A stretch of 64,000 nt of DNA from positions 416,659 to 480,658 of the forward strand of contig KN832568.1 in NCBI GenBank assembly GCA_000827205.1, written 5' to 3'. This DNA is from Plicaturopsis crispa FD-325 SS-3. Lineage: Eukaryota; Basidiomycota; Agaricomycetes; Amylocorticiales; Amylocorticiaceae. Position 1 is the stretch's first letter; each line of letters starts with the position of its first letter. The notes beneath the pieces were generated by a model, which was not told where the DNA came from, ran no database searches, and saw only the letters and a program-made list of their open reading frames with translations. Shown here one piece after another: positions 4,987 to 61,419 of this stretch. A program made the position numbers and the translations under genes.

Positions 4987-5544
4987 CGGCTTCTGCGTCG
5001 CTCGTTTCACCAGTCTGATGCTTTTGGAGCCGGGACGGACGCCTTGGTGCTCTGGAGTTTCTATTTGTTTATGATATAACTACGTTCCCGTCGTCTTTTG
5101 CCTTGCTGTCCCACTTGTCAATGTTATATCCACACCACTTGTACGTCGCATATACAACTCCGCAGCATAATCATTTCAACGAGTTTGCCTAGCGTTGCAT
5201 ACTGATTCAAGCTTCCGTGAGCACCGTTGCCGGATACTTGGAAAGGATGGTAATCGAATGGTGCGTTCGAACCTCGTAAAGGCAGCTGAGGTTCAGGAGT
5301 AAGTGGGTCTTGCTGGAGTTCCTTTTCGGCGCGGGAATGACGGTGGTCTAATCCGAGACCAAGTCAAGAGCTACTTAGCGGCAACGAGCACTTCCCCGAT
5401 GTGGTGCACCGCTACTGTGTCTCTTTGGCGTCTTTACTCTAAATTATAAGGGATCTGATAAGGGATCAGATGCTCAGAGATGGCGGAGCAAGTATAGGAA
5501 AAAACACTCACCTACTAGAGTACACGCTCCCAACTGCTCACAGC
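4987..5544. other. Convergent intergenic region
   Basis: This is the 3' flank of the bHLH gene and of TAN1, which run toward each other. I see no gene. A small partial palindrome (GATCTGATAAGGGATCAGAT) sits at about 5453-5472. Confidence 0.5.
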
Positions 5545-6711
5545 CTATACACGAGTCCCCGCCTCCCCGAACTGCTCCTCCGCATGCTTTGCATTCGCGA
5601 GCTCCATAACATTGAACTTGAGCAGACGGTGGTATCCCCTGACCATGCTCATGCCACATGCGCCCTGTCCCTCTTCGTTAGTGGCACCATAGGCGAGTCG
5701 GATAGCATGTTTCATCTTGCCTTGAATATCTCTACTAGGATACACGCCTCTGGATCCTCTAATTGAACCGTATTCCCCTCTGGCATGCATTGTGCAATCT
5801 CCTGAAGAACTGTTGCGCGCGATAATGCTGCGTGACTGCGCATGCGCATGTCTATCTTGTACTGCGTGAAGAATGTGAGCCAAGGAGCTCGGGGAGGGCG
5901 CTCGGAGATAACTCACGGTGAAGTGCTCATCCGGGTGTTCCGAAAAGAAAGATGCAATGGTTTGTTTCGCTAATAGTACGATTTCGGGGATGTTGGCGGC
6001 GCAGGTTGCCGACACGGGGACGAGACGTTGGGTGTATCTAAAAAAAAGTTGTCGATGCAGGCAGAAGGTGATACTGCAATACACGTACTTTGTACGCGAT
6101 GCACCTGTGCTTTGGACGACCTCGAGGTGGGTCCTCACTAACTTAACGGGATCGACGGGGGCTTTGCAAGAGATGAAAAGGACTATTGGAGGGCCTTAGC
6201 GCGATTCTAACGAGGTCCTCTACAGACATACCACAGGGAATTTCTGTCTTGCACTGGACTAGGGGCTCTCAGCGATCGGCCTTTGCGAAGGAGAGAGGTC
6301 ACGCACTGAATCGTTGCTCTTTCCTTGGCCTCTTCAATGATGATAGCTCCTTGGCAATCTGAGTCTCTAGATCTTCGTCTTCGTCATCCTCCTCACTTCC
6401 ACTGCCCACACCATCTTCCGGCCAGAGCTCCGCCGCAACCTTATGGCGAGGTCAGGACACGATTAAAATATTACGGCAAGGCGTGCGCACCGAGTCAAAG
6501 AGATCGTAGAGTTCTCCGACTGCTTGTTTCTCCTTCCCCTTCACACACGTTACCCACACACCAGGCCCTTCGATGTGTTTTCGGGTCCATGTCGGCGCCC
6601 CATCCTGTACGCGTAGAGGTGAGCCAATGCAGAAGCAAGGGATGATAGGAGTTGACTACTGACAGATCGGTATTTCTTTCTTTTGGCGTGGTTATCTGGT
6701 AGTGCAGGCAT
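5545..6711 (-). CDS. TAN1: tRNA acetylation THUMP-domain protein TAN1
   Basis: Eight exons give 265 residues: 6664-6711, 6491-6604, 6307-6439, 6232-6258, 6089-6182, 5917-6037, 5721-5861 and 5545-5664. The protein opens with a basic tail, then IEGPGVWVTCVKGKEKQA near the N-terminus, an acidic segment, and the THUMP region: IPCVLFISCKAPVDPVKLV, YTQRLVPVSATC, YKIDMRMRSH and CGMSMVRGYHRLLKFNVMEL. TAN1 binds tRNA and acts with the acetyltransferase Kre33/NAT10 to make ac4C12 in tRNA-Ser and tRNA-Leu. The length is close to the yeast protein (about 289). One exon is only 27 nt. The last intron (5665-5720) begins with GC rather than GT and has a good branch site (CACTAAC). Reading through it meets a stop, so the GC-AG intron is needed. 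Confidence 0.92.
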
Positions 6712-7184
6712 TCCGCTCGAGTATTTACAATGAACCGATTCAACTAGAAGTACGAGATCGCTGCAACAGAGAAAGACGCGACGAAAAGACGCGTTCAACT
6801 TGAACCACGTCGATTGCCTAATTAGGAGCCTCAGGCTGACGCCACCCCTGAGCGCTGAGCAGTTGTTGTTGAACGCTCTATTTTACTCTACAGCATGCAA
6901 CTTTTCTCCAAACAGCTATAGTCTGGCTGTCTCACCAGTAGGCTCCTACAAGAAGATGCGCCTCCTTCGTGGACTAGGATATTGTACTTACAGGTAACAA
7001 TTGTCGTTTCAACGCACTACCCGGTGACGTGACTCGGATGTTTGAGCTTTGCATCCGCCGCCCCCCGCGGTCCCGACAGAACGATACACCGGTGCACAGC
7101 GGATAGAACTCAGGGATTTCATAAAACATCCTAGAGTGCCATGCATTTCATCCCCCATTTCGCGCCTCCATCGACTTCGCCACT
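6712..7184. other. Divergent intergenic region
   Basis: About 470 bases between divergent TAN1 and the membrane-protein gene, probably containing both promoters. No gene or recognisable element seen. Confidence 0.5.
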
Positions 7185-46394: not shown

Positions 46395-46688
46395 CAGCCT
46401 CCAAACCAGGCGCGGGGTGCGGTCAGTAAATACGAGAGCGCGATGGTTGTACTAGTTAGCGTTGAATACACGGTTTCCCGCCACTCGCGCGACCCCGCCA
46501 CATAACAAACAACCCCATACTAAACCTTAATTCTGACTGACCGCACCCCAACGCCTGGCAAAACATTGCGTTGGTCGTGTTTGGCTTCTCCGGGAAACGG
46601 CCGGCAATTTCCAAATGTATCGACCGCGTATGAGGCGCGCAATGCGCGCCGCACGCGTCGCGGCATAGGCGTCGCGCACAAGTGGCAT
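46395..46688 (+). repeat. Foldback arm 1
   Basis: Left arm of the foldback element, starting CAGCCTCC. It is the reverse complement of 46905-47198. A nested inverted repeat around CCAGGCG...GGGTGCGGTCAG runs from about 46406 to 46558. Confidence 0.9.
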
Positions 46689-46904: not shown

Positions 46905-47198
46905 ATGCCACTTGTGCGCGACGCCTATGCCGCGACGCGTGCGGCGCGCATTGCGCGCCTCATACGCGGTCGATACATTTGGAAATTGCCGGCCGTTTCC
47001 CGGAGAAGCCAAACACGACCAACGCAATGTTTTGCCAGGCGTTGGGGTGCGGTCAGTCAGAATTAAGGTTTAGTATGGGGTTGTTTGTTATGTGGCGGGG
47101 TCGCGCGAGTGGCGGGAAACCGTGTATTCAACGCTAACTAGTACAACCATCGCGCTCTCGTATTTACTGACCGCACCCCGCGCCTGGTTTGGAGGCTG
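46905..47198 (-). repeat. Foldback arm 2
   Basis: Right arm of the foldback element, equal in length to arm 1 and, by eye, identical to it as reverse complement, ending GGAGGCTG next to the second target-site copy. Confidence 0.9.
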
Positions 47199-47312: not shown

Positions 47313-49321
47313 ATGTCTTCAACGGGGTCGTCGAAGAAACCGATTTCAGAACGTTGTGAGTCACTGCTTTCCTTTGTCTCCACTCATCGACATTCAAGTG
47401 AACGTACAAATCACTCCGGGCAGTCTGCACATCTGACCACGACGTCGTTCTGAAGGCCAGCGATGGCATGCATTTCCATTTCTATCGCAAGAACTTAAAG
47501 GTTCACTCGGAGGGCATGCTACCAACTGGCGACGCTACCGAGCAGTCGACTGCAGAACCCGAGACCATATCGCTTGAGGAGTCCTCAGAGACCATCGACC
47601 TGTTACTGCAGTTCATGTTGCGCCAGAACCAGCCCACTCTCCAAAATGTCTCATTCTCGGCTGTACTTGCGCTGGCGGAGGCGGCCGAAAAGTATCGCGT
47701 TTACTCAGTAGTAGCGCCATGTCAGGTTCATATGCGGTACGCTCTTTTAGCAGCATCATTCTACATCTTCACATCTGTTAATATTGAAGGTATCAGAGAG
47801 ATACTGCCTCAGAATTCCCTGGAGATTCTGGCGTATGCGGGGAAACATCGACATGCAGAACTAGCCGATCTTGCGGCCGTCCCTACTATCAAGAGTTCGC
47901 TGAAGGCTGTTGTTGAGTCGCTGTCTACGATATCACTAGATCTGGTTGTTTCCTGGGTACCCGTTCCATACCCTCGCGGCAAACACTTTCTCATAACTGC
48001 GTGTCTATTCAAGATACGATATCGGGAAACTTGGAACGATGCATTTATCCATGCTCAAGAATCCCTCCGCATGCGCTTTTCGCAGTGTTATGGGGGTTGT
48101 AGATCTGCGGGGACTTTGTCTCTCCATTTCAAGGGGCAGCTTGGATCCTTGTTGGGTATGGATGACATTTTTGTTTCTGTTATACAGAATGATTGCCGTT
48201 ATTGCTCCCCTGGTCTCGTCGCCTGGAAAAACGAAGTGATGATGACGGTCAAGAAACTTGCAGCGTTCAGTACGCACAGCAAAACGTGGTTCGCAAATAG
48301 GATCGACGGTCGGGCGCTCGAAGATGGTGAGTCCAAAATATACTATTGAATCACTACTTGATGCTGAACAACGCAGCCCATAATGAGTTTGACAACGTCG
48401 TAATCATCCAGTCTTGCGACAATGATTTTTTTAGGTTTTCGCGAGACAACCTAGCTGTTCATTCAGAGGGCTTTGAAGGCGCAAGCGCCATATCTTCGAG
48501 CACGTCGATTAGCGCACCGGAAACTATATGTCTTACAGAATCCTCCGCGACACTACGTCTCCTGTTACAATTCATGTCAAGCCGACCTCAGCCAGATCTA
48601 TCCAAAGCGTCATTTCGCGATCTAGCAAATGTATCGGAGGCGGCCGAAAAATACCAGGTCTACGCCGCCTTGCCACCCTGTAAGGCGCACATGGCGTACG
48701 TTTCTCGTTGACTGCTGAAGTTTGGAAACATACTAATCCACGCACACTGTTTGTCTGAAGACGTGCTCTTCCTCAACATCCGTTTCCGGTAATGGCATAT
48801 GCCGCAAGACATGGATATATGTCTCTCGCAAACGAGGCCGCGGAGCTGGTTGTCGCCATGCCTTATGAGGCAATCCTCGCAAAATTGGCTTCCCTTCCCA
48901 TGGATTGCGGGGTCGCTTGGGTGCGTGGTTCTGGCCGGGCTGCCGTATTGACTCACAAAGATCGTTCATCCGCTGAACCTTATAATAGAGCCGCTATCGT
49001 GAACGCTGGATGCTGACTTTGGACCAAGTGTATTCCACACTCGACGCATTGCAATTGCACAATTGCAACTATTCCGAATGCAAATGTCCTATCACTGGCA
49101 AGATTGCCATGAAGTTACATGGCAAGTGCGCGATGTTGCAACCTTCAGCACTTGACGAACTCTCGAGATACGTCACGTCACTCCCCAAGGCGGCACGCTA
49201 CGGTGAACCCAAGCATCCAGAAGGCGTACTATGCGGAAAGTGCCAGGATATCGTCGTTGAGTGGATCAATGCGACGAAGGAGAAGGTAAAAGGCATGAAA
49301 AAGTTTAGCGCATACGTCTAG
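47313..49321 (+). CDS. Tandem (double) BTB/POZ-like protein, copy 1
   Basis: Unit 1 starts MSSTGSSKKPISERF, then after an intron CTSDHDVVLKASDGMHFHFY, RKNLKVHSEGMLP, a linker LDLLLQFM-like helix (IDLLLQFMLRQNQPTLQN), LAEAAEKYRVYSVVAPCQVH and ILAYAGKHRHAELADLAA. Its C-terminal part has an arginine-rich helix and Cys pairs (SQCYGGC; DCRYCSPGLVAWKNEV). Unit 2 repeats the plan: EFDNVVIIQSCDNDFFRFSR, DNLAVHSEGFEGAS, RLLLQFMSSRPQPDLSK, VMAYAARHGYMSLANEAAEL, SRYRERWMLTLDQVYSTLDA, then CNYSECKC and LCGKCQDIVVEW. A 50-nt GT-AG intron at 48327-48376 joins the units in frame. Read unspliced, unit 1 stops at 48349 and an ATG at 48361 would start unit 2, so two separate genes is the alternative. BTB domains mediate protein dimerisation and often recruit Cullin-3; function here is unknown. 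Confidence 0.8.
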
Positions 49322-49748
49322 GCAAGTTCCCGACATGCTTCAAAGATCTCGCATTCGCTAAACTGTGTCCAGAAAGCGACGTTAGGTGCATATAGCTTGA
49401 CATGCTTGATCAGCTAAAGCCTTGTAGCATCTAGCTTAATTTTGAAACAATACGAACCATGTTCCTTTCTCGTCGTGATACGTACTTCCCAGCACTCTGC
49501 GACAATCCACCATAGAAAAGCATCATTGGCGGCCGACCTTGGATCTTCAAGGCTCGTTCAAGCGGTGACTGAGCTCCTCAAGCACATTATACGGTGCGTC
49601 ATCTGGCTTACACAAAGTACACTTCGTTTCTGATCACGAACAAGGCCAGGTTTTGGCCATATATTCTAGCCAGCAACATACCGCGCATTGTGTGATAATG
49701 GACATCCAGGGTCACTAGGAGTCACCACCGCGAAAGCTTGATTTACGC
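49322..49748. other. Intergenic region
   Basis: About 430 bases between double-BTB copy 1 and a partial copy. Two open frames here have no match to the BTB units that I can see. It may hold decayed remains of the missing 5' part. Confidence 0.4.
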
Positions 49749-50051
49749 GTGCACACGACTGCACGCTTCGGCGATGCCATGAGTAAGTGCGCTCGTTCAG
49801 ATGCTCCTGCAAAGACTCGGCGTGCAGTGCTGGTCGCTGGTGCCCGATGTGTGACGGCATTTGAGAGATTTGTCACGACACTTCCCCGTCCCTCGAGTCA
49901 GCCATACGACGGCGGCGCACGACCGATCAGCCCGCTGGATGGGAGGCTTAATAAGAACTGCCAGAGTGTTGTTGCTTGGTGGCTAGCGGGGACCAAAACG
50001 ATGGTGTGGGGAATGGAGAAAAATAGCTCTTACATCGATGCAAAATGGTGA
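49749..50051 (+). pseudogene. Partial BTB-unit copy (C-terminal module only)
   Basis: The open frame aligns with the end of unit 2 of copy 1: AFERFVTTLPRPSS against ELSRYVTSLPKAAR, then NKNCQSVVAWWLAGTKTMVW and GMEKNSSYI against GKCQDIVVEWINATKEKVKG and MKKFSAYV. The BTB part is missing and no start codon or splice acceptor gives a complete product. This looks like a truncated duplicate of the family. Confidence 0.6.
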
Positions 50052-50279
50052 GCACGACGAGGCAAATGCTTTTCATACGCAAAAAGGCTTTTCAGACGCA
50101 AAGCTCACGCGCTCACGATTACGGTAGAAAGGACTTTGGTATAGGTCACAGGTAATGGTATTGATCCACGTAGCAAATGCCAGGCTATTAACGACAACGA
50201 GGGGCGAACCGGTGAAACGTTAAACAAGACAAACAGAGAGCCCAAAGAAATCAGACAAACCGCCGCTACATCCAGCTCT

Positions 50280-51591
50280 ACTTGAGCTTCGCCTTCAGCT
50301 GTGCGACCTTGACTCCGCGCTCCCTCTCGTCCACACCTCTCAGAACCCGCACACGCTCAACCTCCTTCATCTTCTCCGCCATCCTCTCCGTCGCGCCCCG
50401 CGCGCCATCTCTCGCGACCTTCAAGCTCTCCTCCCTCTCCGCCAACTCCGCCTCCAACGCGCGGAACTTGACTTGCGCCGCAAGGTACGCCTCCTCGGCC
50501 TTGAGCGTCGCGGTCAGCGTCTTGGTGTACGCGCTGTGCGCAGCCGCCTCGCGTTTGACCGCGGTTTTTTGCAGTTTCTGGAGCTCGGCGAGTTCGGCGA
50601 TGGATACGGTGAGCGCAGCTTTCTCCGACGCGGCCTCTTTCTGTATCACTTTCGATAGACGCTTGCCTTGTTTGCCTATCCGAGAAACGTTGGTCAGTAT
50701 GTTTATAGTGAGACAGAAGACGATGGTTGACATACGTTCGTCTTTCTCGATGGTTTTCCGCTGCTTGGGCGTGAGCAGTTCCTCGGCGTTCGAAGCGCGG
50801 AAATGAACGCTGTCATCAATGTCAGGCTCGGCGGCGGGTCCTGAGGTAGCTGCGCCATTGATGAAGGTGGATCCTTCATCCGCCATTCCATGTAAAGATC
50901 TCCTGTACTCCGACTTGCTTCCGTGCAGGGAGCCGCGGACTGAGCGCGCAGGGCGAAGGCTTTCATTGGGAGTGGAGGCGACGCGGCGTTTAGTGCGCTT
51001 CGACGGTTTCGAAGATAGGGTATCACGGTCTGCAACGGAGCGGCGTGCAACGGACCCAGGGGACGGAGACGATGCCGAACCACGCATAGACTCGGACGCG
51101 ATACGCTCCTTCACATCGCCTTTAGCCAGGTGTCCGTTTCCGTTCGCCTCATACGGAGGGGAATCGTAAGTGCGCGACAGCGGCGCGTCGGCGTCGATGT
51201 CGCTGTCCTCGGGCTCCTCATCGTCTGTGTCTACCGGGTCGGCAGCTTGCTGCGCTATTGGCGTATGCTCATCAATCGACTCTGGCGTCGTCTGCAAGTC
51301 ACGGCTAGGGTCATGCGCGATCGCGACAGAAGGCTGGCGCGCAACGTGCGCCTTCTCTTCGGTGGCGAGGGTCTCGTCTGGGTTCGGGCCAGCAACGCTC
51401 CTGCTATTCGAAGCTTCAAGACGCGCTTTCGATTCTGCGGCGATCTTGGACTCGGACTTTGACATAGGGACGTCCGTCTTGGACTTGGAGTGGCTAAAGA
51501 AATGCATGCGGGGCTCGTCGGCGTCGTAAAAAATCGTATTTCCGCTGTCCTCGTGTTTGGGTTTGGGTCGCGGAGGTAACACGGGGGGCAT
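50280..51591 (-). CDS. Disordered N-terminus plus coiled-coil protein
   Basis: Starts MPPVLPPRPKPKHEDSGNTI. The first 290 residues are disordered with Ser/Asp/Glu/Arg-rich stretches and Lys/Arg patches (KPSKRTKRRVASTPNE). The last 150 form a continuous coiled coil (KVIQKEAASEKAALTVSIAE and LAELQKLQKTAVKREAAAHS), ending in VAQLKAKLK. One in-frame intron (about 50675-50731, gtatgt..ggatag) at KDER|KQGK should be removed; retention adds about 19 hydrophobic residues. The coil is rich in Ala/Glu/Lys/Leu with heptad spacing. It resembles basidiomycete proteins I have seen called DNA-binding protein Ncp1-like, but that name is uncertain. Function unknown. Confidence 0.75.
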
Positions 51592-52231
51592 GTAGCTTTC
51601 TGTGAGTCAAACACTGTCAGTTCAGTGTCAAAATATGAGGTTCATGGTAACGCACAATTTATAAAGAGCAGGACAAGTCAGAAATGAAGGGATTGTGGTG
51701 GTCGGGAGCAAGATGGCAAAATGTTCGCCTTCCCCGCATTTTATTTATACGGTCCATTTCTCGGAGAGACTGGTGACATCATAATGCCCGATCCACCCTT
51801 TTAAGGCAATCAATTTTCCCGAAATGGTTTAGGTTCCGCGACTCCGCCCGGCGGAACGTCATTTTGTGAGCCTCGAGGCAAACGCAGGACACATTCGACT
51901 AGTCTAGAAAGTTCATCAGACCGCGCGCACCAGACGTTCTCTGAAATACTCCATGGCCAGGGCGAACGCGTCGGAGAAAGACGGCGAAGCTGGAAAGCAG
52001 TTCATGCGGACTCGGTAAGCCATGATGATATACACGCGCGGCCAGTGAGTCGAAGAAGCTGAATAATTATTGTGCTCAAAACCTGGTGTAAGAAACTATC
52101 AAGCACCCTGAGACGGAACGCTCAGAGAGACTTGGACCTACAACGACACTCACCGTATAAATACTGATAAATCCAGGGACCAGCGGTTCAAGTCGGTCTC
52201 CTTTCCTTCACCAGCGCCTTCTCGCGATCAC
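51592..52231. other. Intergenic region
   Basis: About 640 bases between two minus-strand genes. It should contain the coiled-coil gene's promoter. No gene or repeat found. Confidence 0.5.
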
Positions 52232-54461
52232 TCAGTCTCTCTTCGAATGGCGCGAATACAGTACGTGCCCCGCATCACCAAAAGCATCCTCGATTAGACT
52301 GGCGTGATGTGCGCTCCTGGGCGTAATCGCACATTCGAACGGCTCGGGCCCAGTCAAAATGCCCTGCGAGACAACCAGTAAGTACATGCCGATGTCTATG
52401 CACGGGAGGACTTTACGCGCCTTGTGGTAGTTGAGTATGTCGACTGGGATGGGAAGACGCGTCTGCGGGTCGACAGCAAGGTCGAAATTGAATGCCCATA
52501 TCAGGTTCATTGCATTGAGCATCTATATGGTGAAAGTCCGGTCAGTTATACATGTAGTATCGTTTCACAGCTGCGTATCTCACGAGGGAATTGTTGGCGA
52601 GATGGATTCCAGGGCAGATACGCTGTACCCAACGAATGTTATCCTTAGCTAGCATCCACTGAGATAAAACATGGAGCTCACCCTTCCGCAACCAAATGCC
52701 AGGGTATGTCGAAAATCCCGATCGTCAGCGCCGGGTTTGGTTCCGTACTCGGAGCGCAAGAAACGGTCTGGCTCAAAAATGTCGGGGTTGTCGAACATGT
52801 CGCTGTCGTGGAATATACCCCCTAGCATGGATGAGTGAGTGGACTGTAGAAGATACGAGTTATGCAATGCACGTACATGTATTCACGAATATAGTGGAGC
52901 CTTTGGGGATGAGGAACCCGCCAAACTAGAGCCATGCCAATCAATTGCAATTTTAGTGTTACTGGATATCTTGACGCACTTCCTCGTCTGCTGTAGCAGC
53001 ATGTGGCACGCCGAGTGGGGCAACAGGCCTCCATCGATGCGCCTGACATGTTGATCTCTGATAAGCACATTTGACCTCAGGCTGATGCTGAGGCGAGAGA
53101 CTCACCTCCTTCACGACGGCTTGGATATACGGGAGTTGCGCGAAGTCTTCGAGGGTGGGCAGGTGTTCCCACGTCACTACGCGGTCTATCTCCTCGTGCG
53201 CCTTTCGCTGGGCTTCCGGAAATGCAGTAAGCGCGAGGATAAGGGTTTGGAGGAAGTATGAGGTCGTGTCCGCTCCGCCTTCTATCGTCGCAGCGCCAAA
53301 GTACCTAAATAATACATGCATATTAATCTCCGCTTACCATAGTGATATGGCACTTACGCAGCCATTTCCCTCGTCATCCTAAACTCCTCTCGACGCCGCA
53401 TAACTTCTTCCATGTAGCAGCCACTCTCCGCGCCTTCCGTCAAATTTTCCTCGACTTCCCGCAGAAGCCCAAGATGCAGCTCCCTCTGCAGCTTCCGCAC
53501 CTCCTTCGTAAGCGTCTTCCAGGGCGCAAAACGCTCCGGGACGTATTGAAGGATGGGGAGGAGGTCGAGGGGCGGGTGCACGCCGAACTCGAGCGTGTGC
53601 TCCCACAGCCCCTGCGAGTGGAAGAACGCCGTCGCTTCGTGAGTGTCGTAGCGCGGGCAGCGCTTCCCGTACAGAACAGAGAGAATAACAGACATCGAGT
53701 ACCGCCTTGCGTGCTTATAGAAATCCTAGACATGGCGGGCACGCGTATTATGGATCTCTGAGCGGAAAGAATCGAACAACGGGAGGACGCGCCTTGGGAT
53801 CCTTGAGGATGTCGTACATAAGCTGCGTAGCCTCTGCCTTCTGGATTGGCAGATGCCGCGCAGTCGCCTGGGGCGTCAGAACGGCATGCGCCGTCTTCCG
53901 CAAAGTACGCCAGGGCTCGGCTGTCCATTAAATAACGCAATCTCACGCGGTGCAACGTATGATCACAGTGCGAGAATTTGACGTACGGTAACGCGATAGA
54001 ACGAGGTTTAAGCCGCCTGCGACGCGGTCGGCGAGGAAATTTGCAGGGCGGTCCGCCGTTGTGGCGCTCGCGCTTTTGTCCATGAAGGACTTTACGATGG
54101 CCGCGCTTGATATGACGATGGCCGTACTAGGGCCGAGCTTTAACTGTGGAATCGTACTCCTGTGAGCTCATACAAACTATTCGCGGCACCTAAACGCACG
54201 GAGTATATGGCGCCGTACTGCTTCGCCCATTCTGTCAACCTTCGTCGCAGCGTTGTGCATCAGTCGTGCCGGGTACTGATCTTAAATATCTACGCACCTG
54301 AGATGTGTGAATTCAGTGGGGAAGACATGTAAGTTCCCCAAGAGTGACAGTGTCGGTGGTCCAGGCGGAAGTCCTGCCTCGCGCATCCCGATTCTCAGCA
54401 AACGGGTCACCAGATACACGATCGCACCGAGTATGATTGTCGGCGCGATCAGAGACGACAT
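52232..54461 (-). CDS. Cytochrome P450 monooxygenase
   Basis: Starts [20 protein letters not shown], an N-terminal membrane anchor, then the proline hinge [14 protein letters not shown]. Later landmarks are the C-helix WRTLRK, the I-helix [17 protein letters not shown] (AGADTTS-type), the K-helix E-x-x-R rebuilt across an intron (VVKE|AHRWRP), [13 protein letters not shown], the PERF-like region FEPDRFL, and the heme loop [18 protein letters not shown], split by an intron inside GR|RICPG. It ends LYSRHSKRD. Eight or more exons. This is an agaricomycete secondary-metabolism-type P450 bound to the ER; substrate and CYP family number cannot be assigned. It sits between double-BTB copies without a visible metabolic cluster. 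Confidence 0.92.
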
Positions 54462-55213
54462 TGCATGGATGAAAGCAGCGGTTAGTGATCTGCTAGAGCA
54501 GGTACTGTAACTTAATAGGGCGGCTCTGGGAACGAGCTTCAAGCTTCAAGTTAGTGGCGAGAATCGCATCACTTCTCCGGCGCGCGACGTCGAAGAAGGT
54601 GGATATGTTGAGGACTTTGTGTTCTGCTTTGCTTTTGGCTGGCTGCCTCAAGCTGAGCTGCTGAGACGTTCATACGTTCCCGCTCAGGTTCCGCTCAAGC
54701 AATAAATCGATTTTTGATAGAGATTTGTTTCCGTTGATCGGTGCCAATACGCGTTCCTGTATGCTGCTTCCTGCTCTCAACGACTTCGCCGCTGATGCAA
54801 TTTTTTATTTATCATACGCAGATCTTTCCTCGCCTCTAAACTCGGCGCGACAGAGGCTTTTTTGTGAGACGGGCCATCTGTCTCTCGTCCTCACAGCGCT
54901 CCCCTTGTAGCTCGTGTCACATAACGTCAGGCGCAGGCACCGAATCGGTACCACTCGTTGTATGGACAGGTGTGGGGCCCAGTATATCGAAGGAACTCCG
55001 TACCGTAAATCCCAAAGCCCTGCAAACAACCAACCGAATACTTATACCGGGACGCTCGACTCGGCCGCGCGATATCTTTTCTCCCTGCTTGCTCTGTGCT
55101 AGGCATGTCCATCGACGTGCATATTCCCTACGCTCTTTGAACCTGTGTCTACGCCGACTTCTCCCTGTATTCACCGTGACTGGACCCTCCAAAGCCTTGC
55201 CGCGCCCTTTAGG
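54462..55213. other. Divergent intergenic region
   Basis: About 750 bases between the divergent P450 and DUF6534 genes, presumably holding both promoters. Contains a short repeated GTTCCGCTCA near 54675-54700. No gene supported. Confidence 0.45.
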
Positions 55214-56862
55214 ATGGTCAAAGTCCAACTCGTTTTGGGACCGGTCGTCGTATCTGTCGTCTTGAACGCATTCCTGTTTGGGCTGTGTGTACTGCAATTT
55301 AGCACGTACTATGCGTCGCAAGTGAAAACGAAGCCCTTGATTAGGTGTGTGTGTCGAGTTTCTCGCATGTATACGGATACATTTGAACGTGTTCCATAGG
55401 CTGTTAATAGCATGGGTCATGCTGCTGGATACGTACCATACAATTACATCTGTCTATCTCCTCTGGGATTACGTGGTCACCAACTTTAATAACGAGGAGA
55501 TCTTGAATAAGGTAAGTCCAAGAGTGCCATTAAAATCCCAAGTTAACACCTTCGCAGAGCCCGTGGCCATTCCCTTCTACCCCGATTGTTACTGCACTGT
55601 CCGTCGCCTTTTCAATGCGGGCATCTATTTAATGCGCTGACGATAAGACGCGTGCAGTGCATCTGTGCCGATCCAGCATTATCTTGCATGGCGAATCCAG
55701 AGATTCTCTGGTTCATGGTGGATTTTCGGCATAGTTTCGGCAATGTCGGTGCTGCAAGGCATATTTGCCTTTGCCTCCGCGATAAAAGCACTTCTCGTGC
55801 CTAAGTATGTATCCATGCCCTTTGACCCGTCTCACAGATGTACTCAAGATCGTGTTCCTGCAGTATCAGTGATTTCGACAAAGTTATCCCTTACGTGGAT
55901 ACCTGGCTTGGGGTCGCAATGGCCTGCGACCTCACTATCACGTTCGTCGCATCTCTTGTATTCGCCCTTTTTTGACCATTGCTGATAATCACGATACTAG
56001 GGCATTGCTCACGAAGTATCTGCGACAGTGCCGCACGGGCTTCCGCCGCACGGACAATGTCATCGCACGCATCATCCGTTCCTCCGTTGAGACCGCGGCA
56101 TTCGCGTTCTTCTTTTGCATGTACGTCGCGCACTTGATCTCGAGCGACATTGAACTTATGCGCATGCACTCTTGTAGCATGGATTTCATAACATTCGTCA
56201 GTGTTTGTTGAAAGACGTTTATAGCTGGTATATTTACGAGCCGACAGACGATTCCGGTGCTTCAAAATACAAACTTCCATCTAATATTTGCATTAGTACG
56301 TCTGTGCTATCTTCCGTTCGACGAATGGGCGCTCACCTACAATCTTCGTAGCCAATGGGTCGCATTTACACGTGCGTTCAAAATCGCAGCCATTGCCCAA
56401 GTATACTGATAAATATTTTTTCTCGGCGTCACAATAGCAACACACTGATGACGGTGCGTACGCATTCCGTACTGGCCATGCTCTCGCGCTCATATTTTCT
56501 GCGGACAGACCATCAACAGCCGTTCAGAACTACGCATTAAACTCGATGGCGTCCACGACACTACATTCGAGCCCACTGTCAGTCACGCCAAACCTTCTGC
56601 CCCATACGCTCATTGCAGAAACTGACTCGTTTTTCAGCACCCGGGCGGTATCCCCGTGTTTGCGCGCACCGCTGATCCGGAGCATACTGGCGCGGTACTG
56701 ACCGTCGACGTGGCGGAGGAGGAGAATCAGAGCGACGAATCGCATCGTCGGCCGAGCACGGGTTACGACGCGGGCAATCAGATTGAGCTCGACTGTCGGA
56801 AGTATGAGCATTCGGACGCTCATGGGTCGGAGCGGGAGGTCAAGGCTGCTCCGGTTGCTTGA
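55214..56862 (+). CDS. DUF6534-type multi-pass membrane protein
   Basis: Starts MVKVQLVLGPVVVSVVLNAF with a long hydrophobic segment. Subsequent exons give LLIAWVMLLDTYHTITSVYL, SPWPFPSTPIVTALASVPIQ, HYLAWRIQRFSGSWWIFG, DTWLGVAMACDLTITFVAS and CRTGFRRTDNVIARIIRSSV, followed by ETAAFAFFFC. These are the marks of the DUF6534 family (PWP..STPI, then PIQxYLAWRI; RTGFRRTD..I). The last exon is a polar tail (GGIPVFARTADPEHTGAVLT; EEENQSDESHRRPSTGYD). Family members are agaricomycete seven-span membrane proteins of unknown role. Gene structure is reliable through RTGFRRTD; the exons between about 56110 and 56640 are tentative. Confidence 0.75.
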
Positions 56863-57024
56863 GCATGATCTGTCTGTAGACAAGACTGTTGAATAAATGT
56901 GACCATTCCGTTTCTGGGCGTGCATTCACGATTACATGCATCGCAGACAAATTACAGAAATATTCTTTATTGTATTGTTCCTCAAGCAGTACACTTTCCA
57001 ATTCGCTGTGCATCGAAATCAAAT

Positions 57025-59123
57025 TCAAAGGAGAGAACTGAAAGTCGGAATACCCTCTACCATCGTAGTCACTTCCTTCTTCCACCCAATGACTTTTTCA
57101 GCGCAAGTCGGACAATAACCATCTGTCCATACACTTGGACCCCACGTCTCGGAGCGCCGGGAAATATTGGCTGTAACGAAGTCACAGACGACGTCCAAAC
57201 GAAGCAGTGAGTCGTAGGCTGCGCCTAGTCTCAAAGCTATTGTCGCAGCCATCCTCTTCCGGCCTGGCATCGCAAGGCAACGTTTACTCTTGGGGTGCTC
57301 GATAGATTCGGTGTCTGCATAAGGTTCGGTGTCTGCATCAGGTTCGGTGTCTGCATCAAGTTCTAGCCAGGCATTGAGTCTGGCATGGGCGTGTTTCAAT
57401 ACTGATAGCCAGCCCTGGCGATAGCGTGTCTAGGGGAATGTATGATGAATTAATATGATCAAGTCTAGAAAAAGGCGAATTGCGCGTACCCAGGCCAGCA
57501 CATAAGACGAAGGTAATTTGGATAGAGGGAGGAGTTCGTGAGGGCCTTTACTGAGCGTGACCCAGGCTGCTTGATCTGCAATATCATGATAACCATGCCT
57601 AGCGGCATATGCCATGACTGGGAACGGGTGTTTGTCGCGTGCCAACCTGCCGATAACAGTCAGTGCTTGATCCCCGGGTTCCGCTGAGTCAACGTACACC
57701 ATATGCTGTTTGCAAGGAGGGATTGCTGCATAGACTTCGTACTTTTCTGCTGCTTCCGCTAGCAATGCTAAATCTTGGAAGCCAAGTTTGCGGACCTCAG
57801 GTTGGGACGTCCTGGACATAAACTGCAATAACAATTCAATTGTCCGACCAGTTTCCTGAAGATGTATGACTTCAGGGGTAGAGGTGTCCCCGGCACCGCG
57901 TGAAATGGAATTTCCACCTTCAAAGGTAGCCGAATGTACAGATAGATGGTCGCGGAAGAACGGGAATTGTATGTTGTCGCACGATTGGATGATGATGTCG
58001 GAGCCTTCTGTACACCCTGTCATGAAGTTTCCCCTTGAACATCAAATAAGCCTCATCATATATCCTGAGTTTGAGCTCACAATTATTCACGGGCACTTGT
58101 ATGGTCGGATCCTGGTAGTACGCAGTAAAATCTAGCATCGCGTCGACCTGTTGTTCCACTGCGTTCCACCAGGAGGTGTACTCTTCTCGGCACATTTGAA
58201 GATGGCCACATTTGCAGTCATCGATGGAGCCTCCAGCCATGTAAGCACCCCAGTCTGTGACGACCCTGCGCAGCCCGACGACATCGACATTGAGCGATAT
58301 CTCCGCCAGTACATTCCTAGTCGTGCAGGAGTCACCAGAATTTTGAAAAACGGGGTCGAGTAACTGGCAAGCCTTCATGTGTATGCTGTGCCACCTTTCT
58401 GCGTAACAGATCTTCCGGCACACGTGTACTGATCAGGATTGATACGAATGAATACTCGGTCAGCGAAAACTCACCCAAGAAACTACTAGATCCGGTGAAA
58501 GGAGATAGAGAGTGTCTGTGACGGTTTGCGGTTCTGCATCCAGTGTAAACGGGGCTGCAACATTGGCGAGATCAAGGTGTCCGTATTTCAGGGCGAATTC
58601 AAATATTTTCACAGGATACTGAGGAAGCGTGTCTCTGAACGGCATATGAAACTACTGCATGAGTGCCGACGTAGATAGTGAATGACCGGTGCACGCACCT
58701 CATATACTCTTCGCACGGTCTTACGGCGGAATAAACTCGATACTTTTCCGCCGCGGTGGCGAGCAATAGGACATCGGGAAATGGACGTCCTTCAAGGGAA
58801 GGAGGCAGTTGCTGTAACATGAACTGAAGCAGTAGATCCAATGTTTGGGATGCTTGGTCGACCGAGAAAGTTTCGACACCCGCGCTCGAGGAATTCGCAT
58901 CGAGCCTATCCGCGTCTAGAAGTCCCTCAGAGTGGACCTGGATATTCTTGCGATGAAAGTTAAAGGCGACGTGATCGCTAGAAATCAGCACCACATCGTG
59001 ATTCGAGGCGGAAACTAGCGATACTAGAGTGAGCGTCGGATGCAGCGACGGGACAGAGATTGACGACGTACAGCGTTCGGACACGGTGACGTTGAGGCTT
59101 GGGCTGTTGTCGGTGATGTCCAT
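57025..59123 (-). CDS. Tandem (double) BTB/POZ-like protein, copy 2
   Basis: Unit 1 starts MDITDNSPSLNVTVSERF (intron after SER), then SASNHDVVLISSDHVAFNFH, RKNIQVHSEGLLDADR, LDLLLQFMLQQLPPSLEGRP, ATAAEKYRVYSAVRPCEEYM and KIFEFALKYGHLDLANVAAP, and a C-terminal part with CKCGHLQMC. Unit 2 has CTEGSDIIIQSCDNIQFPFF, RDHLSVHSATFEGGNS, ELLLQFMSRTSQPEVRKLGF, VMAYAARHGYHDIADQAAWV and TRYRQGWLSVLKHAHARLNA, then DGYCPTCAEKVIGWKKEVTT and ends IPTFSSLL. A 64-nt intron (58017-58080) joins units in frame (VNN|WCTEG). Unit 2 carries a short threefold repeat of about six residues (ELDADTEPDADTEPYADTE). An ATG at 58023 exists just upstream of unit 2, so a separate gene is possible but the fused frame is exact. 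Same orientation as copy 3. Confidence 0.8.
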
Positions 59124-59463
59124 GGTTACGTCGGGGAGGAGGATAGGGTTGTTAGTACTTGGAATCTAGCAAAGTGCTTGAAGGCCCTGCGAGGAAATTA
59201 GACGCCGCCTGCGTGCTGCCTCATGCCGCAGCAGTAGAAGCACGGAAAGAGCGACAGCGGAAAGAACGTACCTGTCGACCCCATGCCATCCTCATTCAGG
59301 CCTCGAAGGCGAAGGCTGCGCAGCAATCGATAACCCCAAGATGACCCACTATAAGTCTATAACGGGGAACGAAGTAAGCGTCAGATGATGCACGCGGAAG
59401 CAGGGTGGACATTACATTGTACTTTGCGTACTGCCAGTATACATCGGGATACAAAAATCGTGA
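59124..59463. other. Intergenic region between double-BTB copies 2 and 3
   Basis: About 340 bases holding the 3' end of copy 3 and the promoter of copy 2. Nothing further recognised. Confidence 0.5.
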
Positions 59464-61419
59464 TCAAAGGTACGAGCTAAGCTTTGGCACTCCTTGCACC
59501 ACCTTGTTCACCTCGTCGCGCCAGGTAGTCACCCGCACCTTGCACTCTGTGCATAAGCCGGAGTCCTTTACCGTACAGCAGATGCCATAGATTTTCAAGA
59601 GTGATGCAGAGTCCCCTCCGAGTTGCAGAGAGATCCTGCTAGCGGCAGTGGTACGGCAGCAGGCGCAATCTACAGAGCACGACTTGACCAGCTGACGATA
59701 AGCTGCGTGGAGCGCAGACACCCAGCCTTCGCGATACAGTGTCTGGACATGTCGAGTTAGATGCGGCTAATTGTCAATAGACGTGCATACCAAGGCCAGG
59801 GCATATTCCATGGGAAACGATTTTAGCTGCGTACGGACTGTGTCGGGTGAGAGAGGAACGGCGCGCTTCGCGGCCTGATCAGCGATTGAGAGATGGCCGT
59901 GTCTGATGGCCCATCCCATGACTGGTAGCGGGTGATCAGGCATCGCAAGTCTACGAGGAACATATGGGTCGTATCGATTAGCTTTCGAGACTTCAAATTT
60001 GGAGGGAAAACCCACTGCATTGCCTTCCTGCAAGGCACCAAAGCAGTATACACCTCGTATTTCTCGACGGCCTCTGCAAGGTCTGCTAGATCTTCGAACA
60101 GGATGCCACTAAGATCAGGTTGTGGCAGCCGTGACATGAAGCGCAGTAAAAGCTCGAGTGCCTTCGACGACTCCCCGAGGGAGACGATCTCTGGTTTATC
60201 CTGGGTGCATGTCGCGGAATTCGCCCCACCGAAACTTTCCGAGTGAACAGCAAGGTTTTCCTTGGAAAATCGGAATTGTACTCCGTCACTGGATTGGAGG
60301 ACAACGTCGTATTCGTCGCGCCAAACTGGGAGGTGCGTACTGTGAGCCTATTGGCCATCAAGGGGAGGGTGAAAGCGCACCATTAAAGAAGTCCAAGACC
60401 TGTTTCTTGGGGTAAAGGTGCTGGCTGAAGCTGCTGAACTTCTTCACCGCATCTATCTCTGATTTCAAGCTAATGCACCACTTGGAATGCCAGAAACTCT
60501 GATCGTCCGATGCGCAAGAGAAGTCGCTCATTGCTTGTACTGACCTCAGCCCTTCCAGAAGTTCTAAGGCTATGGCCCTAATCGATTTCCTGCAGCCAGC
60601 ACAGCTACCGGTCTTGGCACCAAGACTGAGAGTTTTGAGAGAACGTGATGCGCGTGCAAGAATAACATTCCATTGTTCCCGGTAACAAGCCTGGGCGTAG
60701 ATCAAGCATTTCAATCAGCTATGGTTTCAAGAGGAATCTGCGGGAGCTAAGGCTCACCCAGGACACCGCTAGGAGCGAAGGGAGGCGAGCTAAAGCTTCG
60801 CCGACTTCCTCTGGTGGCATTTTGATGGTGAAGGGGGCTGAGTAATCGGCCAGATCAACGTGCCCATACTTGACAGCGTGGGCGAGGATATCGAGTGAAT
60901 GTTCGGGAAGGATGCTCCTAAAAACGCGAGTTCAGTAGGACCCATACGAAGGATTAGTTTGACACGTACCGCATGCGATCCTGACAGGCTGGCAAGGCAG
61001 AATAAACTCCGTATTTATTGACTGCTTCGGCAAGCGCAACCATATCCACAAAAGGGAGTCCTTCGAGGGAAGGGGGCAACTGCCGCGACATGAATTGGAG
61101 GAGTAAGTCCAACGTCTTGGACGTTTCGTCGACCGCGATCGTATCGATCACCACGCTCGAGGGCTCCTCCGCATTGCTCGTAGCTAAGGGATTGGTATCT
61201 TTAGTGTCTGTGTTCAAGAACCCCACGGAGTGCACTTTGATGTTCTTGCGATAAAAGTTGAATGCGACGCGATCGTTCGATATCAATACAATGTCGTGAT
61301 CTGTAGCGCTAACTGCAACGACACGGATATTAGCCAGCGACTACGGCACGAATCAAGGTCGCCTCACAGCGTGCGGAGGTGGAATCCTTTGGAGATTTGG
61401 AGTGGTCAGCGGTGCTCAT
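59464..61419 (-). CDS. Tandem (double) BTB/POZ-like protein, copy 3
   Basis: Unit 1 starts MSTADHSKSPKDSTSARF, then SATDHDIVLISNDRVAFNFY, RKNIKVHSVGFLNTDT, LDLLLQFMSRQLPPSLEG, LAEAVNKYGVYSALPACQDR, EHSLDILAHAVKYGHVDLAD, ACYREQWNVILARASRSLKT, GSCAGCRKSIRAIALELLEG and VKKFSSFSQHLYPKKQ. Unit 2 begins VWRDEYDVVLQSSDGVQFRF, then SKENLAVHSESFGGAN, ELLLRFMSRLPQPDLSGILF, DLAEAVEKYEVYTALVPCRK, VMGWAIRHGHLSIADQAAKR, LYREGWVSALHAAYRQLVKS, then CACC and LCTECKVRVTTWRDEV, ending KLSSYL. The joining intron (60326-60380, gtgcgc..ctcccag) is GT-AG and in frame. Here unit 2 has no ATG of its own before the BTB, the best evidence that the two units form one protein. Confidence 0.85.

What the first reader, a model, noticed from the sequence alone, without database searches (positions are those of the whole stretch)
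47313..61419. Family of tandem double-BTB proteins expanded in one locus
Three genes each encode two BTB-like units with Cys-pair modules (CxxC type) after each unit. In all three, a single canonical intron joins the end of unit 1 to the start of unit 2 in frame. In copy 3 the second unit has no ATG, so it cannot be an independent gene. Known BTB proteins usually carry one BTB plus Kelch, MATH or BACK. Two units in tandem with a putative zinc-binding C-terminal module look undescribed to me, and local copies plus a fragment suggest recent birth by duplication. Predicted to dimerise or assemble Cullin-3 ligases; function is inference.
Basis: partly seen in the sequence, partly recalled or inferred. 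Interest (0 to 1): 0.75.

Follow-up and report, generated by a model that had tools for sequence, protein, structure and literature searches.

The report
Doubled BTB gene family in mushroom
A mushroom-forming fungus carries a small family of genes in which one ordinary protein-binding (BTB) gene has been doubled end to end into a single longer protein; the doubling looks real and old, but proteins with two BTB domains are already known in other organisms, so this is a neat new variant and not a new kind of system.

Summary
The host is Plicaturopsis (Plicatura) crispa FD-325 SS-3: public protein PLICRDRAFT_45358 equals my model of C letter for letter. Five more doubles were found outside the window (D-H), one with a stop codon in unit 2. 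All 8 unit 1s form one clade, all 8 unit 2s another: one unit duplication, then copying of double genes. Single-unit relatives share intron layout; the linker intron sits where they have a leader intron.

Corrections: the terminal CxxC is in 8 of 8 unit 2s but 1 of 8 unit 1s; window copies are 38-42% identical, so not recent; tandem BTB proteins are known (LZTR1, RhoBTB1, S. pombe Btb3). Probably a tandem-BTB adaptor, perhaps for Cullin-3 (inferred, untested). New variant of a known kind.

The parts
47313..49321 (+). Copy A, double-BTB gene. Exons 47313-47355, 47424-47736, 47797-47956, 48014-48326 (unit 1), 48377-48695, 48761-48920, 48989-49321 (unit 2); 546 aa
   Evidence: spliced model, one terminal stop, intron phases 1-2-0-1-2-0; public model P0001 covers only unit 1
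48327..48376 (+). Copy A linker intron (50 nt, GTGAGT...ACGCAG, phase 1) joining unit 1 to unit 2
   Evidence: unspliced reading of unit 1 stops 7 codons past the donor
57025..59123 (-). Copy B, double-BTB gene. Exons 59123-59072, 59014-58699, 58634-58475, 58411-58081 (unit 1), 58016-57698, 57646-57490, 57429-57025 (unit 2); 579 aa
   Evidence: no public protein for it was returned by the searches
58017..58080 (-). Copy B linker intron (64 nt, GTGAGC...TGACAG, phase 1); a second in-frame acceptor 12 nt downstream (intron end 58005) is possible
59464..61419 (-). Copy C, double-BTB gene. Exons 61419-61368, 61312-60970, 60917-60758, 60690-60381 (unit 1), 60325-60016, 59950-59791, 59742-59464 (unit 2); 537 aa
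   Evidence: identical letter for letter to public PLICRDRAFT_45358 = P0003
60326..60380 (-). Copy C linker intron (55 nt, GTGCGC...TCCCAG, phase 1); unit 2 has no in-frame ATG of its own
49719..50051 (+). Degenerate fragment resembling the C-terminal module of copy A unit 2 (similar part about 49866-50036)
   Evidence: score 84 against A unit 2; 1000 shuffles reach at most 46; not listed by tblastn at E<=10

Best explanation
Each gene encodes one polypeptide of about 540-580 residues with two copies of the unit [BTB - BACK-like helices - helical C-terminal module]. Shown by sequence: a single-unit gene with a short leader exon and intron phases 1-2-0 was doubled once. The last exon of the first copy now splices, by a phase-1 intron, onto the BTB exon of the second copy, at the place where single-unit genes have their leader intron; the stop of unit 1 and the leader exon of unit 2 are gone. 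The double gene was then copied to at least eight loci. Unit 2 kept the terminal CxxC; unit 1 lacks it in 7 of 8 copies. Inferred: the protein works as a tandem-BTB adaptor of the LZTR1 / Btb3 kind. The two BTB-BACK units provide pairing and cullin-binding surfaces, probably with Cullin-3, and the variable C-terminal modules bind partners or substrates. Unit 2 is likely the conserved working half and unit 1 a diverged partner domain.
Against: No transcript or protein data. The public model of copy A ends between the units. Copy E has an in-frame TGA ten residues past the junction, so that copy should make only unit 1. No Cullin-3 contact was tested; no substrate is known. The best Foldseek E-value for the double is only 4e-4, and the C-terminal modules have no clear structural match. 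A two-domain PDB chain that matched over 215 columns (4u2m, Miz1-BCL6) aligned at rmsd 19.6, so a canonical BTB dimer within one chain is not supported by that comparison. Some VIA rows for the double skip between units or have rmsd above 5. Pfam finds at most one BTB in each of the six Plicaturopsis proteins scanned and a BTB in 1 of 4 units scanned alone (C2; not C1, H1, H2).
Confidence: 0.6

Rival explanations
1. The double protein is real, but it is a scaffold or regulator outside Cullin-3 ligases, for example a nuclear BTB-BACK regulator in the manner of plant NPR1 or BTB transcription co-factors.
Against: Many of the best matches are named in their titles as parts of Cul3 complexes (SPOP, KBTBD2, KLHL3, KLHL22, A55), and S. 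pombe tandem-BTB Btb3 is a Cul3/Pcu3 adaptor (passages).
Confidence: 0.25
2. Each locus holds two adjacent single-BTB genes that annotation (and this study) has wrongly joined.
For: Public model of copy A ends in the linker intron; A and B have an ATG just upstream of unit 2, inside the predicted intron; no transcripts seen.
Against: In-frame phase-1 junction in 8 of 8 copies including the highly diverged H; no unit-1 stop before the junction in 8 of 8; no private start for unit 2 in 6 of 8; five of six public models found cross the junction; linker introns of only 50-64 nt. True neighbouring single-unit genes on C1 and C4 do not offer such a junction.
Confidence: 0.05
3. A drifting local duplicate family on its way to decay, with no conserved job.
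For: Copy E nonsense codon; degenerate fragment beside copy A; the C-terminal module of unit 1 evolves fast, e.g. C-E dN 0.95.
Against: dN below dS in both units in the 7 pairs computed, most of them old; 7 of 8 copies are intact over about 540-580 codons.
Confidence: 0.1

Closest known systems
Single-unit agaricomycete BTB family (Mycena P0011/P0012/P0014, Marasmius fiardii P0008, Tetrapyrgos P0009, Amylostereum P0013, Cyathus P0017; 10 loci examined in the host genome)
   Same: Same BTB + BACK-like + C-terminal module; of 10 relatives from elsewhere looked at, 7 have the terminal CxxC and 7 a Phe-Ser/Thr-x-Phe tail; the host's single-unit genes share the intron positions
   Different: One unit per protein
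Marasmius sp. AFHP31 P0020 (430 aa)
   Same: Two units of the same profile (64.9 and 61.2 bits) in one protein
   Different: Its halves are each other's sisters (100/98): an independent doubling, though on long branches
LZTR1 (human)
   Same: Two BTB-BACK units in tandem, Cul3 adaptor (passages)
   Different: Has a Kelch propeller in front; no counterpart of the C-terminal module was looked for
S. pombe Btb3
   Same: Fungal BTB protein; both its BTB domains are needed for binding Pcu3 (Cul3) (passages)
   Different: Grouped with the BTB-ankyrin proteins (PMC1257465, passage)
RhoBTB1/2/3
   Same: Two BTB domains; in RhoBTB1 these plus the C-terminal domain are needed for recruiting the substrate (passages; RhoBTB1-3 from the listing)
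   Different: N-terminal GTPase domain
Trametes pubescens TRAPUB_1680 (P0010, 542 aa)
   Same: Agaricomycete protein with two BTB stretches by Pfam
   Different: Weak match to this family (44.6 and 15.3 bits); probably another subfamily

Membership tests
BTB/POZ domain proteins (PF00651) | Sequence match to the BTB model at the curated cut-off (20.5 bits) | tested here: met
   Met for one unit in P0003 (unit 2, 26.4 bits), P0006 (unit 2, 30.5), P0005 (unit 1, 20.9) and P0001 (unit 1, 21.2); not met in P0002 (18.7) and P0007 (none). Units scanned alone: 1 of 4 met
BTB/POZ domain proteins (PF00651) | BTB fold in each unit | tested here: met
Tandem BTB-BACK proteins (LZTR1-like architecture) | Two BTB-BACK units on one chain | tested here: met
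Tandem BTB-BACK proteins (LZTR1-like architecture) | Kelch, ankyrin or GTPase partner domain | tested here: not met
   Pfam shows nothing but BTB at its cut-off in the six Plicaturopsis proteins scanned
Cullin-3 substrate adaptor | Binds Cullin-3 | not testable with these tools
   Needs a binding experiment; the genome holds three cullin loci, not told apart here
Cullin-3 substrate adaptor | BTB followed by 3-box/BACK helices that contact Cul3 | tested here: inconclusive
   Helices after the BTB superpose on chains from Cul3 complexes (A55, KLHL3, KEAP1), but contact residues were not compared
Zinc-binding module | Complete set of metal ligands in the C-terminal module | tested here: inconclusive
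   CxxC in 8 of 8 unit 2s and one further Cys conserved in the seven rows of alignment A2; no fourth ligand identified; CxxC absent at that position in 7 of 8 unit 1s

The most novel reading that the evidence does not exclude
Agaricomycete single-unit BTB genes repeatedly turn into single-chain double adaptors, helped by a phase-1 leader intron that lets the last exon of one copy splice onto the next copy's BTB. In Plicatura this made an obligate, asymmetric two-BTB adaptor: unit 2, which lost its leader strand, keeps the ancestral C-terminal module, and unit 1, freed from it, evolves new partner specificity. The eight-member family would then be a natural series of built-in BTB heterodimers.
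Probability: 0.3. Interest if true: 0.5.

Novelty: new variant of a known kind. Interest (0 to 1): 0.35.

Why it matters
It gives a clean example of how a BTB gene doubles into one polypeptide, with the intron that made it possible still in place and single-unit relatives, some in tandem, in the same genome for comparison. If the two units pair within one chain, the family would let one test how fixed BTB heterodimers change Cullin-3 adaptor function. It also shows that Pfam's BTB model at its cut-off finds at most one of the two units in the proteins scanned.

Tried and rejected
Two adjacent genes wrongly joined: rejected for the reasons given under rivals. Two same-strand neighbours that could have been further doubles, C4d-C4e and C1c-C1b, were tested and look like separate genes. 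Recent local birth: rejected on divergence. Cys modules after both units: rejected for 7 of 8 unit 1s at the terminal position. A canonical BTB dimer inside one chain: no support from the one two-domain match looked at (4u2m, rmsd 19.6); no coordinates of the model were in the Python box, so inter-unit packing could not be inspected. Sequence search of the PDB with the double profile gave no BTB entry (3 chance-level hits). tblastn of copy C against plasmid records: no match. The PF00651 search of the genome gave 44 exon matches, of which only those related to copy C unit 1 or H unit 2 were examined for doubling, so eight is a lower bound. Alignment A1 held 7 of the 8 doubles (E left out). Paper searches: the listings of eight searches showed no description of this family: BTB+POZ+Agaricomycetes+'gene family expansion' (0 papers), Plicaturopsis crispa+BTB, BTB+fungi+Agaricomycetes+F-box+mushroom, tandem/two/double BTB (20 of 27 listed), expanded agaricomycete families (15 of 34 listed), Btb3+Pcu3, P. 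crispa genome, lineage-specific BTB (10 of 40 listed). Beyond listings I saw only passages of PMC1257465, PMC10123110, PMC10413933, PMC8154269, PMC8893723 and PMC2785787. Each protein search scored about 8000 candidates that share words with the query, so absence of doubles in other species is not shown.
Full report
WHERE IT IS. The window is bases 416659-480658 of contig C15 of a 33.2 Mb genome in 49 contigs. A protein search with the spliced copy A protein returned Plicaturopsis crispa FD-325 SS-3 records, and one of them, PLICRDRAFT_45358 (P0003, 537 aa), is identical letter for letter to my independent spliced model of window copy C. NCBI lists the species as Plicatura crispa, Amylocorticiales, Agaricomycetes.

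CHECK OF THE OBSERVATION. I wrote a spliced protein-to-DNA aligner and modelled the three genes. A (47313-49321 +), B (59123-57025 -) and C (61419-59464 -) are single open spliced frames of 546, 579 and 537 residues. Each has two units, and each unit has a phase-2 intron after the BTB and a phase-0 intron at a conserved position (Trp in most units); a phase-1 intron precedes each BTB. Read without splicing, unit 1 of A and of C runs 7 codons past the donor to a stop, and B's runs 53 codons, out of frame with unit 2. Copy C unit 2 has no ATG of its own; A and B have one, 6 and 3 codons upstream, inside the predicted intron.

THE FAMILY IN THE GENOME. A six-frame search of the whole genome with copy C unit 1 shows pairs of units, 957 to 1172 bases apart, at further places. 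Five of these are doubles as well: D and E just past the window, F about 50 kb past its end on C15, G on C3, H on C35 (loci L061-L064). All 8 join unit 1 to unit 2 in frame by a phase-1 intron; the intron phases are 1-2-0-1-2-0 in 7 of 8, and H lacks only the leader intron. D uses a GC-AG intron at the unit 1 Trp. E carries an in-frame TGA at codon 296, ten residues past the junction; the public model P0007 (295 aa) ends there. Of the six public models found, those of C, F and G are identical to mine; that of D (P0006, 455 aa) crosses the junction, agrees over 442 residues and then differs; that of E crosses it and ends at the TGA; that of A (P0001, 302 aa) agrees over 172 residues, keeps a 57-nt intron and ends in the linker intron. 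For B and H the searches returned none. Eight is a lower bound: the BTB family search gave 44 exon matches, and only those found by copy C unit 1 or H unit 2 were examined.

CONTROL FOR MISJOINED NEIGHBOURS. Single-unit genes of the same family also lie in tandem on one strand. For two such pairs I asked whether a splice from the end of the first to the BTB of the second exists: C1c-C1b gives none, C4d-C4e only one poor candidate of 290 nt in another phase; C1c has its stop straight after the usual tail. The doubles are thus unlike true neighbours.

ORIGIN. A maximum-likelihood tree of 35 BTB+BACK cores puts the 8 unit 1s in one clade (100/98) and the 8 unit 2s in another (98/94), apart from 10 single-unit cores of the same genome and 9 from other sources; H's two units are long branches. 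So the unit was doubled once and the double gene was then copied. With a Marasmius double added, the 16 units group together with moderate support (87/73), and the unit 2 clade drops to 90/94. Of 10 single-unit genes of this genome (C1 and C4), 9 have the phase-2 intron after the BTB (C4d was modelled as phase 0) and 7 the phase-0 intron at the Trp; C1a and C1d came out unspliced there and C1c one phase off, which may be modelling error. In 8 of 10 a short ATG exon with a phase-1 intron just before the BTB can be found; C4b and C4e gave none, though by eye C4e has a similar leader with a GC donor (sequence). The linker intron therefore sits where a single gene has its leader intron. The simplest reading is a tandem duplication followed by loss of the first copy's stop and the second copy's leader exon. 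In the models the leader strand is present in unit 1 and in the Mycena single unit (first strand at residues 13-19 and 12-18) but not ahead of unit 2.

AGE AND CONSTRAINT. Unit for unit, A, B and C are 38-42% identical. Of seven gene pairs analysed (28 are possible; none is between two window copies), six have synonymous differences at or near saturation over the whole gene; only D-E, outside the window, is closer (dS 0.65). dN is below dS in both units throughout. This is an old family under constraint, not a recent birth. dS is uneven along D-E and C-E, as gene conversion would give.

CYS MODULES. The terminal CxxC is in 8 of 8 unit 2s. In unit 1 it is at that position only in copy A; C1 and F1 have a CxxC earlier, the other five none. 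Of 10 single-unit relatives from other sources, 7 have it near the C-terminus and P0011, P0016 and P0019 do not. The module thus looks ancestral, and unit 1 has mostly lost it. Zinc binding is inference: I see a CxxC and one more conserved Cys in the seven sequences of alignment A2, not a full ligand set.

MECHANISM. Most likely a tandem-BTB adaptor with two BTB-BACK units, as in LZTR1, where BTB1-BACK is said to be required for dimerisation and both units may contact Cul3 (passage), and as in S. pombe Btb3, where both BTBs are needed for Pcu3 (passage) and which acts in Chk1 loss (passages). In RhoBTB1 the two BTBs plus the C-terminal domain make the substrate-binding part (passages). The genome has three cullin loci (not told apart here), fitting the Cul1, Cul3 and Cul4 set reported for fungi (passages). 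BTB/POZ proteins are among the ubiquitination genes with conserved developmental expression in complex fungi (passage), but nothing here shows when these copies are expressed. Cul3 binding is inferred, not shown.

NOVELTY. Tandem BTB proteins are known, including in fungi; two further agaricomycete ones turned up here (Marasmius P0020, whose halves are sisters, so an independent doubling; Trametes P0010, probably another subfamily). What is new, as far as the listings of eight paper searches show, is this particular doubled family, its intron-based origin and its spread to at least eight loci. The single proteins are already in public databases as hypothetical or BTB domain-containing proteins. 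I rate it a new variant of a known kind.

Noticed in passing
window 46395-46688 and 46905-47198: A perfect inverted repeat: 294-nt arms, 100% complementary, 216 nt apart, ending 114 nt before the ATG of copy A. Partial copies on C28, C8 and C5; perhaps a fold-back mobile element, or an assembly artefact.
   Followed up: partly
Marasmius sp. AFHP31 protein P0020: A second, independent double of the same BTB unit: halves align with score 166 (500 shuffles reach at most 54) and are sisters in the tree at 100/98, on long branches.
   Followed up: partly
Trametes pubescens protein P0010: A 542-aa protein with two BTB stretches by Pfam, only weakly like this family.
   Followed up: partly
L061 (copies D at 911-2892 and E at 5161-7148) and window copy C: Synonymous divergence is very uneven along D-E and C-E (e.g. 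D-E unit 2 BTB 1.8 against C-terminal module 0.24), as gene conversion would leave.
   Followed up: no
window 47313-49321: The public model of copy A (P0001, 302 aa) keeps a 57-nt intron and stops in the linker intron; likely a mis-annotation.
   Followed up: partly
window about 57305-57365: Short repeat in the unit 2 C-terminal module of copy B (repeated Asp-Ala-Asp-Thr-Glu), not seen in the other seven copies.
   Followed up: no
L061:1577-1627: Copy D uses a GC-AG intron at the unit 1 Trp position; 51 nt without a stop, so retention would also stay in frame.
   Followed up: no
L067 (C1:227000-236500) and L066 (C4:712500-720500): Same-strand neighbours among the single-unit genes (C1c-C1b; C4d-C4e), each with its own stop before the next gene: a plausible precursor stage of the fused doubles.
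   Followed up: partly
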